From Patescibacteria group bacterium (lineage in GTDB: Bacteria > Patescibacteriota > Minisyncoccia > Moranbacterales > DUUL01), in the NCBI GenBank assembly GCA_015493225.1, contig WGDO01000012.1, positions 1-52,897 on the forward strand: 52,897 nt of DNA, given 5' to 3'. Shown here piece after piece: positions 38,129 to 45,140 of the stretch; positions within the stretch are counted from its first letter, which is position 1; each line of letters opens with the position of its first letter. The translations under genes and the position numbers were made by a program. The notes under the pieces were generated by a model, which was not told where the DNA came from, did no database searches, and was given only the letters and a program-made list of their open reading frames with translations.

Positions 38129-38467
38129 TTTACGAATTTTTAGCCCTACGAATCTACAAATCAAGTACGAATTTACAAATATACAAATATTTTGCATTTA
38201 AATTTTAAATTTAAAATTTTAAATTTAAATTCAATTTAAAATACCTCAATTTAAAAACTCATTATAACTCTTCCTATATAGATTCCTTTAAATAAATTGT
38301 GAAATCATTTTATAAATTTAAAATTTGAATATTGAAAATTTTTATCTCCCGTTTAGAGATGAAATTAAAAATCGCAAATTTAAAATTAAAATTATCTACC
38401 ATCTACTAATTACTACCCACCAAACAGCCAGGCGGCTATAAAACAAGCAGATAAAATTAATTAAAAA
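38129..38467. repeat. Very AT-rich spacer with palindromes and a dispersed-repeat copy
   Basis: The first part (CCCTACGAATCTACAAATCA and following) resembles the repeats at 45018 and 50795. Then come palindromic runs of AAATTTAAAATTT type. No gene is evident. Confidence 0.5.
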
Positions 38468-41893: not shown

Positions 41894-41922
41894 TTGATTT
41901 TAAGTTTGTAAAATAGTATAAT
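41894..41922 (+). promoter_or_regulatory. Promoter of the acyl-CoA synthetase gene
   Basis: TTGATT, 17-bp spacer, TATAAT. Transcription from about 41929 would place the hairpin at 41970-42069 in the 5' leader. Confidence 0.65.
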
Positions 41923-41969
41923 AGAGATAGTTTGAACTTATCTAAAGTAAACTTGTGTATCAAGCTTCT

Positions 41970-42069
41970 CATCGAGCTTTTCGGGCGTTATTTTCTACCT
42001 GATGTTTGACTTCTCTTTATTTTTAAGCGTCAAGCATGCGTCCGAAAATAACGCCCGAAAAACTCTATG
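41970..42069 (+). ncRNA. Structured leader hairpin, copy 1
   Basis: A 100-nt hairpin: outer stem of 25 positions (41970-41994 with 42045-42069, 23 paired), an internal loop CTACCTG (41995-42001) opposite GCGTCCG (42038-42044), and an inner 9-bp stem ATGTTTGAC (42002-42010) with GTCAAGCAT (42029-42037, one G-U pair), closed by an 18-nt loop. It lies between a promoter and the acyl-CoA synthetase start, 57 nt upstream of it. The second copy keeps the loop and the pairing but changes the stem sequence. No T tract follows, so it is not a simple terminator. It could be a cis-regulatory RNA, or a DNA hairpin element. Confidence 0.6.
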
Positions 42070-42126
42070 AATAAAGAAATTTAGCAATTTATTTTAGATG
42101 ACTTATTTTGATTAATATAAAAACAA

Positions 42127-44232
42127 ATGGAAAAAATATTTAAACCTCAAAAAGTAGCCATAGTTGGAGCGTCGGCAACAGCTGGTAAAATTGGCAATAT
42201 TTTAATTAAAAATATTAAGTCAAAAGTCCAAAGTCCAAAGTCAAAAGTCAATCCTACTCTGCTATCCCACTTCGCTAAAGTTACGAGGGATAAGAAGCTT
42301 CGCGGGACAGGCACAGGGGGTGTAAAGATATTTCCTGTCAACCCCAAGGGTGGAGAAATTGATGGATTAACTGTCTATAAATCTTTGGCGGATATCAAAG
42401 AAAAGATAGATTTAGCAGTCATTGCTGTCCCAGCAAAATTTGTTAATCAAGTTATTCAAGAGGGCGCCAGCAAAGAAGAATCAGTTAGTAATTTTATAAT
42501 TATTGCTGCCGGTTTTGGTGAGGCTGGTCCCGAAGGCATAGCTCGCAAGGAGGAAATGCAAAAATTAATCAAAGAATATAATTTAAATATTCTTGGGCCG
42601 AATTGCCTAGGAGTTATTAATGCCACCGAAAATATTAATTTAAGTTTTGCTAAGAAAGAAGTTGCCGTTGGTAAAATAGGTTTAATTTCTCAGTCCGGAG
42701 CCTTCATCACGGCGATGATTGACATCGCCGAAAAAGAGCAATTTGGTTTTTCCCTAATCGCTTCTTTGGGAAATAAAATTGATATTAATGAAGTTGAGTT
42801 ATTAGACTATTACAACCAAGACCCCAACACTAAAATTATTGCTCTGTATTTAGAAAGTATTAGCCAGGGGAAAGAATTTCAAAAGAAATTAACAGAAGTA
42901 AAAAAGCCAGTGATAATTATTAAAGCAGGCAATACAACTCGTACTCAGCAAGCCATTCAATCCCACACTGGTTCCATGGCTGGAGAATCAGCTGTTATCG
43001 AGGAAGTCATTAAAGACAGTGGGGCAATCCAAGTTGATAATTTAGAAGATTTCGTTACTATCTTACAAATTTTTAATAATTTCAAAACTACTTCCTCTGG
43101 GCAAAATTTAGTTATTGTAACCAATGCTGGTGGCCCAGGAGTAATTACTACCGATTTAATTGAAAATAGTAAATTAGCCTTACGAGAATTTACGAAAGAA
43201 GAGAAGAGAGAATTAAAAAACCTATTACCGAAAGAAAGTTCTGTCAACAACCCCATTGACCTTTTGGGAGATGCTTTAGAAGATCGTTATGACAGCATAT
43301 TGCAAAAGTTGCAGACAATGCCGAGAGTTGATGGAGTGTTGGCTTTGATTACTCCCCAGTCTCAAACACCCATAAAAGAAATTACAGAAGTAATTATCAA
43401 GGCTAATCAAGAGTCAGCATTTCCAATTTTCCCCATTGTCATTGGAGGAGAAGCGGAGAGGTCGGCCAGTAAGATATGCCGTCAAGCAGGTTTTAATAGC
43501 TTTACTTTTCCAGTTATGGTAACCAGGGCTTTAAATTTAATGACTCCAAAATTAGCACAAAAAAATAAAGATAATTCAAAAGACAAAGAGAACCTACAAA
43601 GTAGCAAGACAATGGGGAAATTATTAAGCTATCAAGACACAATACAAATTGCTCTAAAATATAATCTTAATATTTTGGGAGCAGAATATCCAAACACTTC
43701 TCGGGAACTGGAGGAAGCAGTGAAGAAAATTGGATTGCCTGTGGTAATGAAAGTGGATAGTCCAAACATTATTCACAAAAATGCTCACAATGGAGTAGTG
43801 GTTGGTTTGGAAACTTTGGCAGAAGCCCAAATTGAATTTTCTCGATTCCAAAAAGATTTCCCAGGAGAAAAAGTTTTAGTGCAACATCAGGTTTCCAGCG
43901 GTTTGGAAATTATATTAGGATTAAAAAGGGATGAGTCATTTGGACTAGTTTTGGTTATTGGGCTAGGAGGAATTATTACGGAAATTCTGGATGAAAAAAT
44001 ATTATTTGTGAATGAAGTTAGCGAAGCTCAGATTAGATTTAAATTGGAAAATAGTAAATTATTAAAAATTTTACAGAAAGAAAAAATTTCTGAAAATGAT
44101 TTAATAGATCAGGCTTTGCGATTGTTTAAATTGGGGCAAGAAAATACAGACATCAAAGAGATTGATATTAATCCAATGTTTTTTTACAAAAATAAACAGC
44201 CAGTAATTGTAGACTTTAAAATAATTAAATAA
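42127..44232 (+). CDS. ADP-forming acetate/acyl-CoA ligase, alpha and beta parts fused
   Basis: A 701-residue enzyme that would interconvert acyl-CoA, ADP and phosphate with the free acid, CoA and ATP, giving substrate-level ATP formation. The N-terminal CoA-binding domain starts VAIVGASATAGKIGNIL. The ligase domains have LGPNCLGVIN, LISQSGAFITAM and SHTGSMAGE with the phosphohistidine at His280. The C-terminus is an ATP-grasp domain (KVLVQHQVSSGLEIILGLKR). Residues 31-65 are an extra segment from repeat-like DNA at 42217-42322, interrupting the usual run into FPVNPKGGEIDG. Fermentative energy metabolism is plausible. Confidence 0.88.
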   Translation: MEKIFKPQKVAIVGASATAGKIGNILIKNIKSKVQSPKSKVNPTLLSHFAKVTRDKKLRGTGTGGVKIFPVNPKGGEIDGLTVYKSLADIKEKIDLAVIAVPAKFVNQVIQEGASKEESVSNFIIIAAGFGEAGPEGIARKEEMQKLIKEYNLNILGPNCLGVINATENINLSFAKKEVAVGKIGLISQSGAFITAMIDIAEKEQFGFSLIASLGNKIDINEVELLDYYNQDPNTKIIALYLESISQGKEFQKKLTEVKKPVIIIKAGNTTRTQQAIQSHTGSMAGESAVIEEVIKDSGAIQVDNLEDFVTILQIFNNFKTTSSGQNLVIVTNAGGPGVITTDLIENSKLALREFTKEEKRELKNLLPKESSVNNPIDLLGDALEDRYDSILQKLQTMPRVDGVLALITPQSQTPIKEITEVIIKANQESAFPIFPIVIGGEAERSASKICRQAGFNSFTFPVMVTRALNLMTPKLAQKNKDNSKDKENLQSSKTMGKLLSYQDTIQIALKYNLNILGAEYPNTSRELEEAVKKIGLPVVMKVDSPNIIHKNAHNGVVVGLETLAEAQIEFSRFQKDFPGEKVLVQHQVSSGLEIILGLKRDESFGLVLVIGLGGIITEILDEKILFVNEVSEAQIRFKLENSKLLKILQKEKISENDLIDQALRLFKLGQENTDIKEIDINPMFFYKNKQPVIVDFKIIK
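42217..42322. repeat. Repeat-like insertion in frame inside the acyl-CoA ligase gene
   Basis: It starts with AAGTCAAAAGTCCAAAGTCC-type units, then a GC-richer part with TATCCC/GGGATA and two CTTCGC motifs. It adds about 35 residues without breaking the frame. Confidence 0.55.
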
Positions 44233-44278
44233 AAATTTATCCAAGGGTATTTATATGTAAAATGTACTCTAAGCGCTT

Positions 44279-44380
44279 CATCAAACTTTCTGGATACTAT
44301 TTTCTACCTGATGTTTGACTCTTTGTAATTAAAGAGAGTGTCAAACATGCGTTCGAAAATAGTATCCAGAAAGTTTGATG
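44279..44380 (+). ncRNA. Structured leader hairpin, copy 2
   Basis: A 102-nt hairpin with a perfect 25-bp outer stem (44279-44303 with 44356-44380), the same internal loop CTACCTG (44304-44310) opposite GCGTTCG (44349-44355), a perfect inner stem ATGTTTGAC / GTCAAACAT, and a 20-nt apical loop that can form a further small stem (CTCTTT/AAAGAG). It precedes the receiver-domain gene by 46 nt. Relative to copy 1, eight outer pairs are changed on both sides so that pairing is kept. Confidence 0.6.
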
Positions 44381-44426
44381 AATAAAGAGTTGTCAAAAAT
44401 AACCTTAGATAAATTAAAATAAATTT

Positions 44427-45005
44427 ATGGCCATAGATATAGACAATAATAATAAAATTTTAATCATTCAACCAGATGACCAAACGCGTAGTATGTTAGT
44501 GGAAATTTTTAAAGAAAATGATTTTGATGTGCTGGAGGCCCGTGATGGCGCCGAGGGTTTTGCTAAAGCTAATAATCAGCCAGACATTAGCGTTGTTTTG
44601 ACTGATTTAACTATGCCTCGAATTGATGGTTGGGAATTTTTGAAAACAAAAAAAGATAATGAATTTTTGAAAGATGTTCCAGTGGTTATTTATGCTAATT
44701 TAATTAGTCGGGAAGATAAACAAGCAGCTCTGGATGCCGGGGCTCAGGATTTTATTGCCAAAGGAGCGGCTTCTCCAGCGGAAATTGTGCAAAAAGTAGC
44801 CCGAGCGATGCAACAGGGGGAGTATGATTTGCAGGTTGATCCCTACGCCTTAGACGCTCAGCAATTTATTGAAGATTTTCATCTCAACAGTAATTTTCAA
44901 TGTACCAATTGTGGAAGTCCCTTAGCAGTGAGAATTAAAGCTTATAAGGGCAAGGATTTAACAGCTAAAATTGTGTGTCCGAACTGTGGAAAGGAATATC
45001 TTTAA
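44427..45005 (+). CDS. Response-regulator receiver domain with C-terminal zinc ribbon
   Basis: A 192-residue protein. Residues about 10-130 are a receiver domain: KILIIQPDDQTRSMLVEIF, the phospho-acceptor Asp in VVLTDLTMPRIDGWEFL, and the conserved Lys in DFIAKGAA. The usual switch Thr/Ser after the fourth strand appears to be Ala (VVIYANL). The C-terminus carries two CxxC pairs (CTNCGSPLA and CPNCGKEYL), a likely zinc ribbon. No DNA-binding domain or histidine kinase is nearby. A structured leader precedes it. Confidence 0.8.
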   Translation: MAIDIDNNNKILIIQPDDQTRSMLVEIFKENDFDVLEARDGAEGFAKANNQPDISVVLTDLTMPRIDGWEFLKTKKDNEFLKDVPVVIYANLISREDKQAALDAGAQDFIAKGAASPAEIVQKVARAMQQGEYDLQVDPYALDAQQFIEDFHLNSNFQCTNCGSPLAVRIKAYKGKDLTAKIVCPNCGKEYL

Positions 45006-45017
45006 TTATTACGAGTT

Positions 45018-45140
45018 TACGGCCCCTACGAAAATACAAATTAATTACGAATCTACGAATTACTCACTGCGTTCGCTATGTAGCAGATTTGTCATCCTTG
45101 AGCGGGAGATAAATAGGTTTGCAGAGACCACAATAGTTTA
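45018..45140. repeat. Dispersed repeat, copy before recJ
   Basis: GGCCCCTACGAAAATACAAA, then ACTCACTGCGTTCGCTATG, then a GTAGCAGATTTGTCATCC-like part. It closely matches 50795-50960, and its first part matches the spacer after secY. Confidence 0.65.

What the first reader, a model, noticed from the sequence alone, without database searches (positions are those of the whole stretch)
41970..44380. Two leader hairpins with eight compensated base-pair changes
The hairpins at 41970-42069 and 44279-44380 share an internal loop (CTACCTG opposite GCGTYCG) and inner stem, but their 25-position outer stems differ at positions 5, 7, 12, 13, 16, 17, 18 and 19. At each the partner base on the other arm has changed too, so pairing is kept (G-C to A-T or T-A to C-G and so on). 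Copy 2 pairs at all 25 positions and copy 1 at 23. This is the pattern expected of a selected structure, and I know of no named RNA family with it. Gene conversion between arms of a palindromic DNA element is the main alternative.
Basis: seen in the sequence. Interest (0 to 1): 0.87.

Follow-up and report, generated by a model that had tools for sequence, protein, structure and literature searches.

The report
Palindromic repeat family just after promoters
The two hairpins are copies of an apparently undescribed family of palindromic DNA repeats, found in one group of tiny bacteria, that usually sits a few bases after a gene's promoter; the matched changes in their arms look like DNA copying between the two arms rather than proof of a selected RNA.

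Summary
They are two of 17 copies in this 1.3-Mb Moraniibacteriota-like genome. A second genus holds 10, a third 6, a fourth 1; none was found in the other 127 genomes of the order searched. There is no Rfam match.

The covariation is real (70 double-changed cells against 24 when shuffled), but the arms do not look held by RNA selection. G.U and A.C mismatches are equally common (29 v 26), whereas tRNAs of the same genome give 49 v 0. One copy (L003) has the loop half of one arm rewritten as the exact complement of the other; another (L053) has its core inverted. Both are known footprints of template switching.

Copies cluster by genome and are mostly absent from orthologous sites: a MITE-like dispersed repeat. 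Unexpectedly, 18 of 25 copies start 10-14 nt after a host -10 box (background about 2), and all 17 in this genome lie in the downstream gene's sense. So most are probably transcribed as long structured 5' leaders with a conserved internal loop. Whether placement reflects targeted insertion or selection is open.

The parts
41894..41922 (+). Host promoter of copy 1: TTGATT, 17 nt, TATAAT (-10 at 41917-41922); predicted start of transcription about 41929
   Evidence: 10 of 12 consensus matches, joint best in the region; -10 ends 12 nt before the element
41935..41955 (+). Copy 1, outer inverted repeat, 5' strand (AACTTATCTAAAGTAAACTTG)
   Evidence: Pairs with 42083-42104; no shuffle of 30 as good; predicted fold
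41970..41995 (+). Copy 1, 5' arm (25 positions of the finding plus the closing C-G pair)
   Evidence: Sequence
41996..42001 (+). Copy 1, internal loop, 5' strand TACCTG
   Evidence: Conserved in 18 of 27 copies exactly, 94% per position
42002..42037 (+). Copy 1, inner stem ATGTTTGAC / GTCAAGCAT (42002-42010 with 42029-42037) and terminal loop
42038..42043 (+). Copy 1, internal loop, 3' strand GCGTCC
42044..42069 (+). Copy 1, 3' arm
42083..42104 (+). Copy 1, outer inverted repeat, 3' strand
42127..44232 (+). Gene behind copy 1: ADP-forming acyl-CoA synthetase-like protein, 701 aa (name from its sequence, not from a family search)
   Evidence: ORF; the G001 orthologue L064 also has a copy 50 nt before its start
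44193..44222 (+). Weak promoter-like site before copy 2: TAAACA, 18 nt, TAAAAT; its -10 ends 11 nt before the element
   Evidence: 9 of 12 matches
44234..44246 (+). Copy 2, outer inverted repeat, 5' strand AATTTATCCAAGG
   Evidence: 12 of 13 pairs with 44403-44415; no shuffle of 30 as good
44279..44304 (+). Copy 2, 5' arm
44305..44310 (+). Copy 2, internal loop, 5' strand TACCTG
44311..44348 (+). Copy 2, inner stem ATGTTTGAC / GTCAAACAT (44311-44319 with 44340-44348) and terminal loop
44349..44354 (+). Copy 2, internal loop, 3' strand GCGTTC
44355..44380 (+). Copy 2, 3' arm
44403..44415 (+). Copy 2, outer inverted repeat, 3' strand CCTTAGATAAATT
44427..45005 (+). Gene behind copy 2: response-regulator receiver protein, 192 aa (name from its sequence)
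   Evidence: ORF; the acs-to-regulator gap is 194 bp here and about 11 bp in G001 (L076)

Best explanation
The hairpins belong to a family of short (about 170-180 bp), non-coding, quasi-palindromic dispersed repeats: a MITE-like element restricted, as far as searched, to one family of Ca. Moraniibacteriota. Each copy has an outer inverted repeat (consensus AACTYATYTAGGG...CCCTRAATGAGTT), a 25-bp arm pair, a conserved 6x6 internal loop flanked by TTATTTT/AAAATAA, and a 9-bp inner stem. Shown: copies multiplied separately in each genome and are mostly absent from orthologous sites. Shown: the arms stay complementary without the G.U bias of an RNA helix. Inferred: replication template switching between the arms (arm homogenisation) produces the compensated changes. 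Shown: most copies begin 10-14 nt after a host -10 box, in the gene's sense, with the hairpin ending 25-70 nt before the start codon. Inferred: they are transcribed as 5' leaders and fold into long hairpins that are likely RNase III substrates and may stabilise or tune the mRNA, as Correia/NEMIS elements do. Not known: which enzyme moves them, and whether the promoter placement comes from targeted insertion or from selection.
For: 17, 10, 6 and 1 copies in four genera. Copies cluster by genome, and the copies at the orthologous acs gene (w1, L064) fall in different groups. 12 of 13 G001 orthologues of G000 target genes have no copy; the reverse holds for gpmI, htrA, ahpD and the L051 gene. In pairs 6-20 of the arms G.U 29 v A.C 26, against 49 v 0 in tRNAs of this genome. 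L003: loop strand GCGTCC rewritten to CAGGTA, the exact complement of the facing strand; L053: core inverted relative to its flanks. Both products are documented for template switching between inverted repeats (PMC8604942; PMC8794818). G004 arms share only about half their letters between copies yet pair 85% Watson-Crick. -10 box 10-14 nt upstream in 18 of 25 copies v mean 2.1 in other windows. RNase III genes in all four carriers.
Against: No target-site duplication was seen and no autonomous partner or matching transposase was found. Strict sense orientation in G000 (17 of 17) and the tight promoter spacing are not expected of an ordinary MITE. The conserved internal loop suggests a specific binding function. 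Equal G.U and A.C could also arise if copies decay neutrally after being shed by a source copy whose RNA was under selection.
Confidence: 0.6

Rival explanations
1. A bona fide cis-regulatory leader RNA family, riboswitch-like or protein-binding. The internal loop with its flanking A-U stem is the binding site, and the leader has been carried to many genes by duplication.
For: Sense orientation in 17 of 17 G000 copies, promoter spacing, constant distance to the start codon, and a loop conserved while the arms diverge.
Against: No G.U bias in the arms. The target genes are unrelated (acs, response regulator, infA, map, murG, xth, clpP, groES, thioredoxin, glycosyltransferases). Orthologues mostly lack it. 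Some G001 copies are antisense to the neighbour or have a flipped core (L049, L053). No terminator follows the window hairpins. No Rfam match.
Confidence: 0.24
2. A single-stranded-DNA or cruciform recombination site (attC-like or IS200-like logic): a recombinase recognises the folded hairpin by its unpaired loop bases, and the arms matter only as a scaffold.
For: Arms free in sequence but complementary, with a fixed unpaired core (G004); symmetric mismatch types fit a DNA hairpin.
Against: No integrase cassettes. Y1 transposase genes do not track the element: present in G000, G001, G003 and G005, not detected in G004 or G009, and not flanked by it. Size and layout differ from attC and from IS200 ends.
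Confidence: 0.08
3. A REP element (GTAG- or CGTC-tagged) mobilised by a RAYT transposase.
For: The loop strands contain CTAC (GTAG on the other strand) and CGTC. A Y1 ORF of 278 aa exists in G000 (L090).
Against: REPs are 20-40 bp with the tag unpaired at one end (PMC3733652). Here the unit is about 175 bp, the motifs lie inside the loop, and the Y1 gene is not flanked by this element.
Confidence: 0.03

Closest known systems
Correia repeat / NEMIS elements of Neisseria (MITE)
   Same: Short non-coding palindromic repeats, dispersed next to genes, co-transcribed, folding into long hairpins; one lies immediately downstream of the mtrCDE promoter, RNase III can cut the transcripts, and inversion has been reported (PMC10969869, PMC2649163).
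   Different: Here the unit lies a fixed 10-14 nt after host -10 boxes, in the sense of the gene, has a conserved asymmetric internal loop, and its arms differ between copies with compensation. No promoter of its own was found. Sequence homology was not compared.
REP elements, GTAG and CGTC families (PMC3733652)
   Same: Dispersed extragenic palindromes with unpaired conserved bases.
   Different: REPs are 20-40 bp, tagged at one end, and lie mainly after genes.
Riboswitches and other structured 5' leaders (Rfam cis-reg)
   Same: Structured 5' leader on the sense strand near the start of transcription, with a conserved unpaired core.
   Different: No shared regulon, no orthologous conservation, no G.U bias in the arms, no Rfam match, no terminator switch.
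Template switching between inverted repeats (PMC8794818, PMC8604942)
   Same: Arm homogenisation, blocks of compensated changes and spacer inversion.
   Different: A mutational process, not an element family; here inferred from sequence patterns and not observed.

Membership tests
MITE | Short, without coding capacity, multi-copy and dispersed | tested here: met
   About 170-180 bp, no ORF; 17 and 10 copies per genome
MITE | Terminal inverted repeats | tested here: met
   AACTYATYTAGGG / CCCTRAATGAGTT in the same register in many copies, variants that still pair in others; better than at least 29 of 30 shuffles in 11 of 27
MITE | Presence/absence at orthologous sites | tested here: met
   12 of 13 G001 orthologues of target genes lack it; window gap 194 v about 11 bp
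MITE | Target-site duplication | tested here: inconclusive
   None seen by eye in filled/empty comparisons, but the two genera are too far apart to align the sites base by base
MITE | Autonomous partner with matching ends | tested here: inconclusive
   Only Y1 and reverse transcriptase genes were sought; neither tracks the element
Correia / NEMIS | Sequence homology to Neisseria Correia ends | not tested
   No Correia sequence was compared; the likeness is in how it may work only
REP (GTAG / CGTC) | 20-40 bp hairpin with the tag unpaired at one end | tested here: not met
   Unit about 175 bp, motifs inside the internal loop
REP (GTAG / CGTC) | Flanks a RAYT gene | tested here: not met
   Y1 ORFs in L089 and L090 have no copy nearby
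Cis-regulatory RNA (riboswitch-like) | Located in the 5' leader, sense strand | tested here: met
   17 of 17 in G000; -10 spacing in 18 of 25; no transcript data
Cis-regulatory RNA (riboswitch-like) | Helices held by selection on the RNA (G.U kept, A.C not) | tested here: not met
   29 v 26 in the arms; tRNA control 49 v 0
Cis-regulatory RNA (riboswitch-like) | Kept in front of orthologous or functionally linked genes | tested here: not met
   Only acs shared, and those two copies are not sisters
Cis-regulatory RNA (riboswitch-like) | Match to a described family | tested here: not met
   No Rfam 15 match at gathering score; sub-threshold hits over the element are almost all miRNA-type hairpin models

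The most novel reading that the evidence does not exclude
A mobile palindromic element that inserts directionally into the melted DNA of active promoters (about +4 to +7 from the start of transcription) and so gives its hosts ready-made structured 5' leaders with a protein-binding internal loop: a transposon that spreads a leader-RNA module.
Probability: 0.2. Interest if true: 0.85.

Novelty: new variant of a known kind. Interest (0 to 1): 0.55.

Why it matters
First, it is a worked example in which strong, statistically solid compensatory covariation, the usual proof of a functional RNA, is better explained by DNA-level copying between palindrome arms; the G.U/A.C ratio with a tRNA control is a simple general test. 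Second, the literature searched here shows no MITE-like family in Patescibacteria (0 papers hold both terms; open-access library only), bacteria with very small genomes. Third, the placement 10-14 nt after a host -10 box, always in the gene's sense in this genome, is not explained by ordinary intergenic insertion. It makes a testable question: targeted insertion into open promoters, or selection for a structured 5' end.

Tried and rejected
Intrinsic terminator: no T-run follows either hairpin. Known RNA family: none. Retroelement: reverse transcriptase domains in G000 and G004 but not in G001 or G009. IS200/RAYT: Y1 ORFs in G000 and G001, neither flanked by the element, and none detected in G004 or G009. 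Phage or plasmid origin: no DNA match; pattern absent from IMG/VR. Ancient leader inherited with each gene: contradicted by the tree and the empty sites. Element carrying its own promoter: rejected, since the -10 is also present at empty orthologous sites (sugT, GT, gpmI, htrA) and the upstream flanks share little beyond the hexamer. The test whether outer stems pair better with their own partner than with other copies' partners was weak (permutation p = 0.046), because the repeat is conserved. In the outer stem the mismatch count (22 G.U v 7 A.C) is biased by the scoring used to find it and was not used; it leaves room for RNA selection there.

Full report
Observation. Each change is compensated: positions 5, 7, 16 and 18 go from G-C to A-T; 12 and 19 from T-A to C-G; 13 and 17 from C-G to T-A. 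Copy 1 fails at positions 4 and 8 only.

A repeat family. The core TTTTCTACCTGATG has 12 exact and 5 one-mismatch matches in the genome (one element counts twice because both its arms match). A covariance model from 16 copies (R1) finds 17 elements in G000 and 10 in G001, an assembly of Ca. Moraniibacteriota (JALVDV01). A second model that includes these (R2) finds 6 in G004 and 1 in G009, and none in the other genomes of a 131-genome search of the order (stricter filters there may lose weak matches). R2's training set already held one of the G004 copies and the G009 copy; R1 alone had found both (E = 0.0017 and 6e-6), and the five other G004 copies were unseen by the model.

Anatomy. The unit is larger than the reported hairpin. 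It runs from an outer inverted repeat (AACTYATYTAGGG or AACTYATYTAAAGTAAA) through the 25-bp arms, the internal loop and inner stem, and back to the complementary repeat. Copy 1 and copy 2 have different but self-complementary outer repeats. In 27 copies the loop strand TACCTG and the inner stem are about 94% conserved, the loop-side stem TATTTTC/GAAAATA about 96%, the facing loop strand 80% and the distal arms 79%. In G004 the loop region reads TCACTG/ACGTTC and in G009 TCCCTG/ACGGTC, always next to an A-T stem like TTATTTT/AAAATAA, while the distal arms are unrelated between copies and still pair.

What made the compensated changes? An RNA helix under selection tolerates G.U but not A.C. A DNA palindrome treats the two alike, since G.T on one strand is A.C on the other. 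Pairs 6-20 of 33 copies hold 29 G.U and 26 A.C (G000 6/8, G001 20/10, G004 3/8). Stems of tRNAs of the same genome hold 49 and 0 (6 of 42 tRNAs did not parse, and even one A.C in each of those would leave a large contrast). G001 alone leans towards G.U, so the result is a pooled one. The L003 copy has GCGTCC replaced by CAGGTA, the exact complement of the facing loop strand, so that the hairpin is a perfect palindrome there. In L053 the core points one way and the outer flanks the other. Arm homogenisation, multi-base compensated changes and spacer inversion are the described products of template switching between inverted repeats (PMC8604942; PMC8794818). The data do not exclude that a source copy evolved under RNA selection and that the present copies are decaying.

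Mobile or inherited? Copies group by genome, and the copies in front of the orthologous acyl-CoA synthetase gene in G000 (copy 1 of the window) and G001 (L064) belong to different groups; single branches of this short-sequence tree are weakly supported. Chimeric protein queries located orthologues of the target genes. Of 13 found in G001, 12 have no element, and the infA region has one in the opposite orientation (L049). In the window itself, copy 2 lies in a 194-bp gap between acs and the response-regulator gene; in G001 that gap is about 11 bp (L076). This is gain or loss of a discrete unit, with separate amplification in each lineage. No enzyme was identified: Y1 transposase and reverse transcriptase genes do not follow the element.

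The promoter. Of 25 copies with a recognisable 5' end, 18 have a -10-like hexamer ending 10-14 nt upstream, against a mean of 2.1 for equal windows further up. For copy 1 it is TTGATT-17-TATAAT, joint best promoter match of the region. At sugT, GT, gpmI and htrA the genome without the element keeps a -10, so the promoter is the host's. All 17 G000 copies lie in the sense of the next gene, and 18 of 27 hairpins end 25-70 nt before its start codon. Several G001 copies break the rule (L045, L049, L056, and L053 with its flipped core). Most copies are therefore probably transcribed from about +5, giving mRNAs whose first 170 nt or so fold on themselves. Long helices of this kind are RNase III substrates in general (established knowledge), and all four carrier genomes encode RNase III. 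I infer processing or 5'-end protection; nothing here measures it.

Comparison. The closest known systems are the MITEs that sit in leaders, above all Correia/NEMIS elements, of which one lies just downstream of the mtrCDE promoter and whose transcripts are cut by RNase III (PMC10969869). The element meets the MITE criteria of size, copy number, inverted ends and presence/absence; target duplication and autonomous partner are unresolved. It is not a REP by size and layout (PMC3733652), and it fails the tests that would make it a riboswitch-like RNA family.

Verdict. A new MITE-like palindromic family with an unusual promoter-locked, sense-oriented placement and a conserved internal loop. A leader-RNA function of the core remains open.

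Noticed in passing
window 42217-42320: The acs ORF carries an in-frame insertion of about 30 codons (SKVQSPKSKVNPTLLSHFAKVTRDKKLRGTGTGG) absent from the G001 orthologue; part of it (GCTAAAGTTACGAGGGATAAGAAGCTTCGC) recurs with mismatches elsewhere in the genome near tRNA genes (contig 24). It looks like a second repeat family inside a coding gene, as Rickettsia palindromic elements do.
   Followed up: partly
window 38144-38180 and 45024-45060: A third intergenic repeat, CCCTACGAATCTACAAATCAAGTACGAATT, 84% alike; its reverse complement also follows the L013 element.
   Followed up: no
L090 (G000 contig 25), Y1 transposase-like ORF: The 278-aa Y1 ORF contains palindromes such as TTTGCGAAGGTCCAACCTTTGCA within its coding region.
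   Followed up: no
L092 (G009), 1400-1640: The ileS leader has a T-box-like GGTGGTACCACGG and a terminator-like stretch, with the repeat element lying between these and the start codon.
   Followed up: no
L100 and L105 (G004), just 3' of the element: Both copies are followed at a similar distance by a CCCCCTT...AAGGGGGATTAAGGGGG repeat, although their distal arms are unrelated.
   Followed up: partly
L001 (G000) and L078 (G001), infA leader: A terminator-like stretch ending GCGCCTTCGTTTTTTT or GCAACCTTCGTTTTTTT is shared upstream of infA in both genera; possibly a conserved infA attenuator.
   Followed up: no
G000 contigs 49 and 68: Two RNase III genes in one very small genome; the assembly has 2.3% estimated contamination, so one may be foreign.
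   Followed up: no
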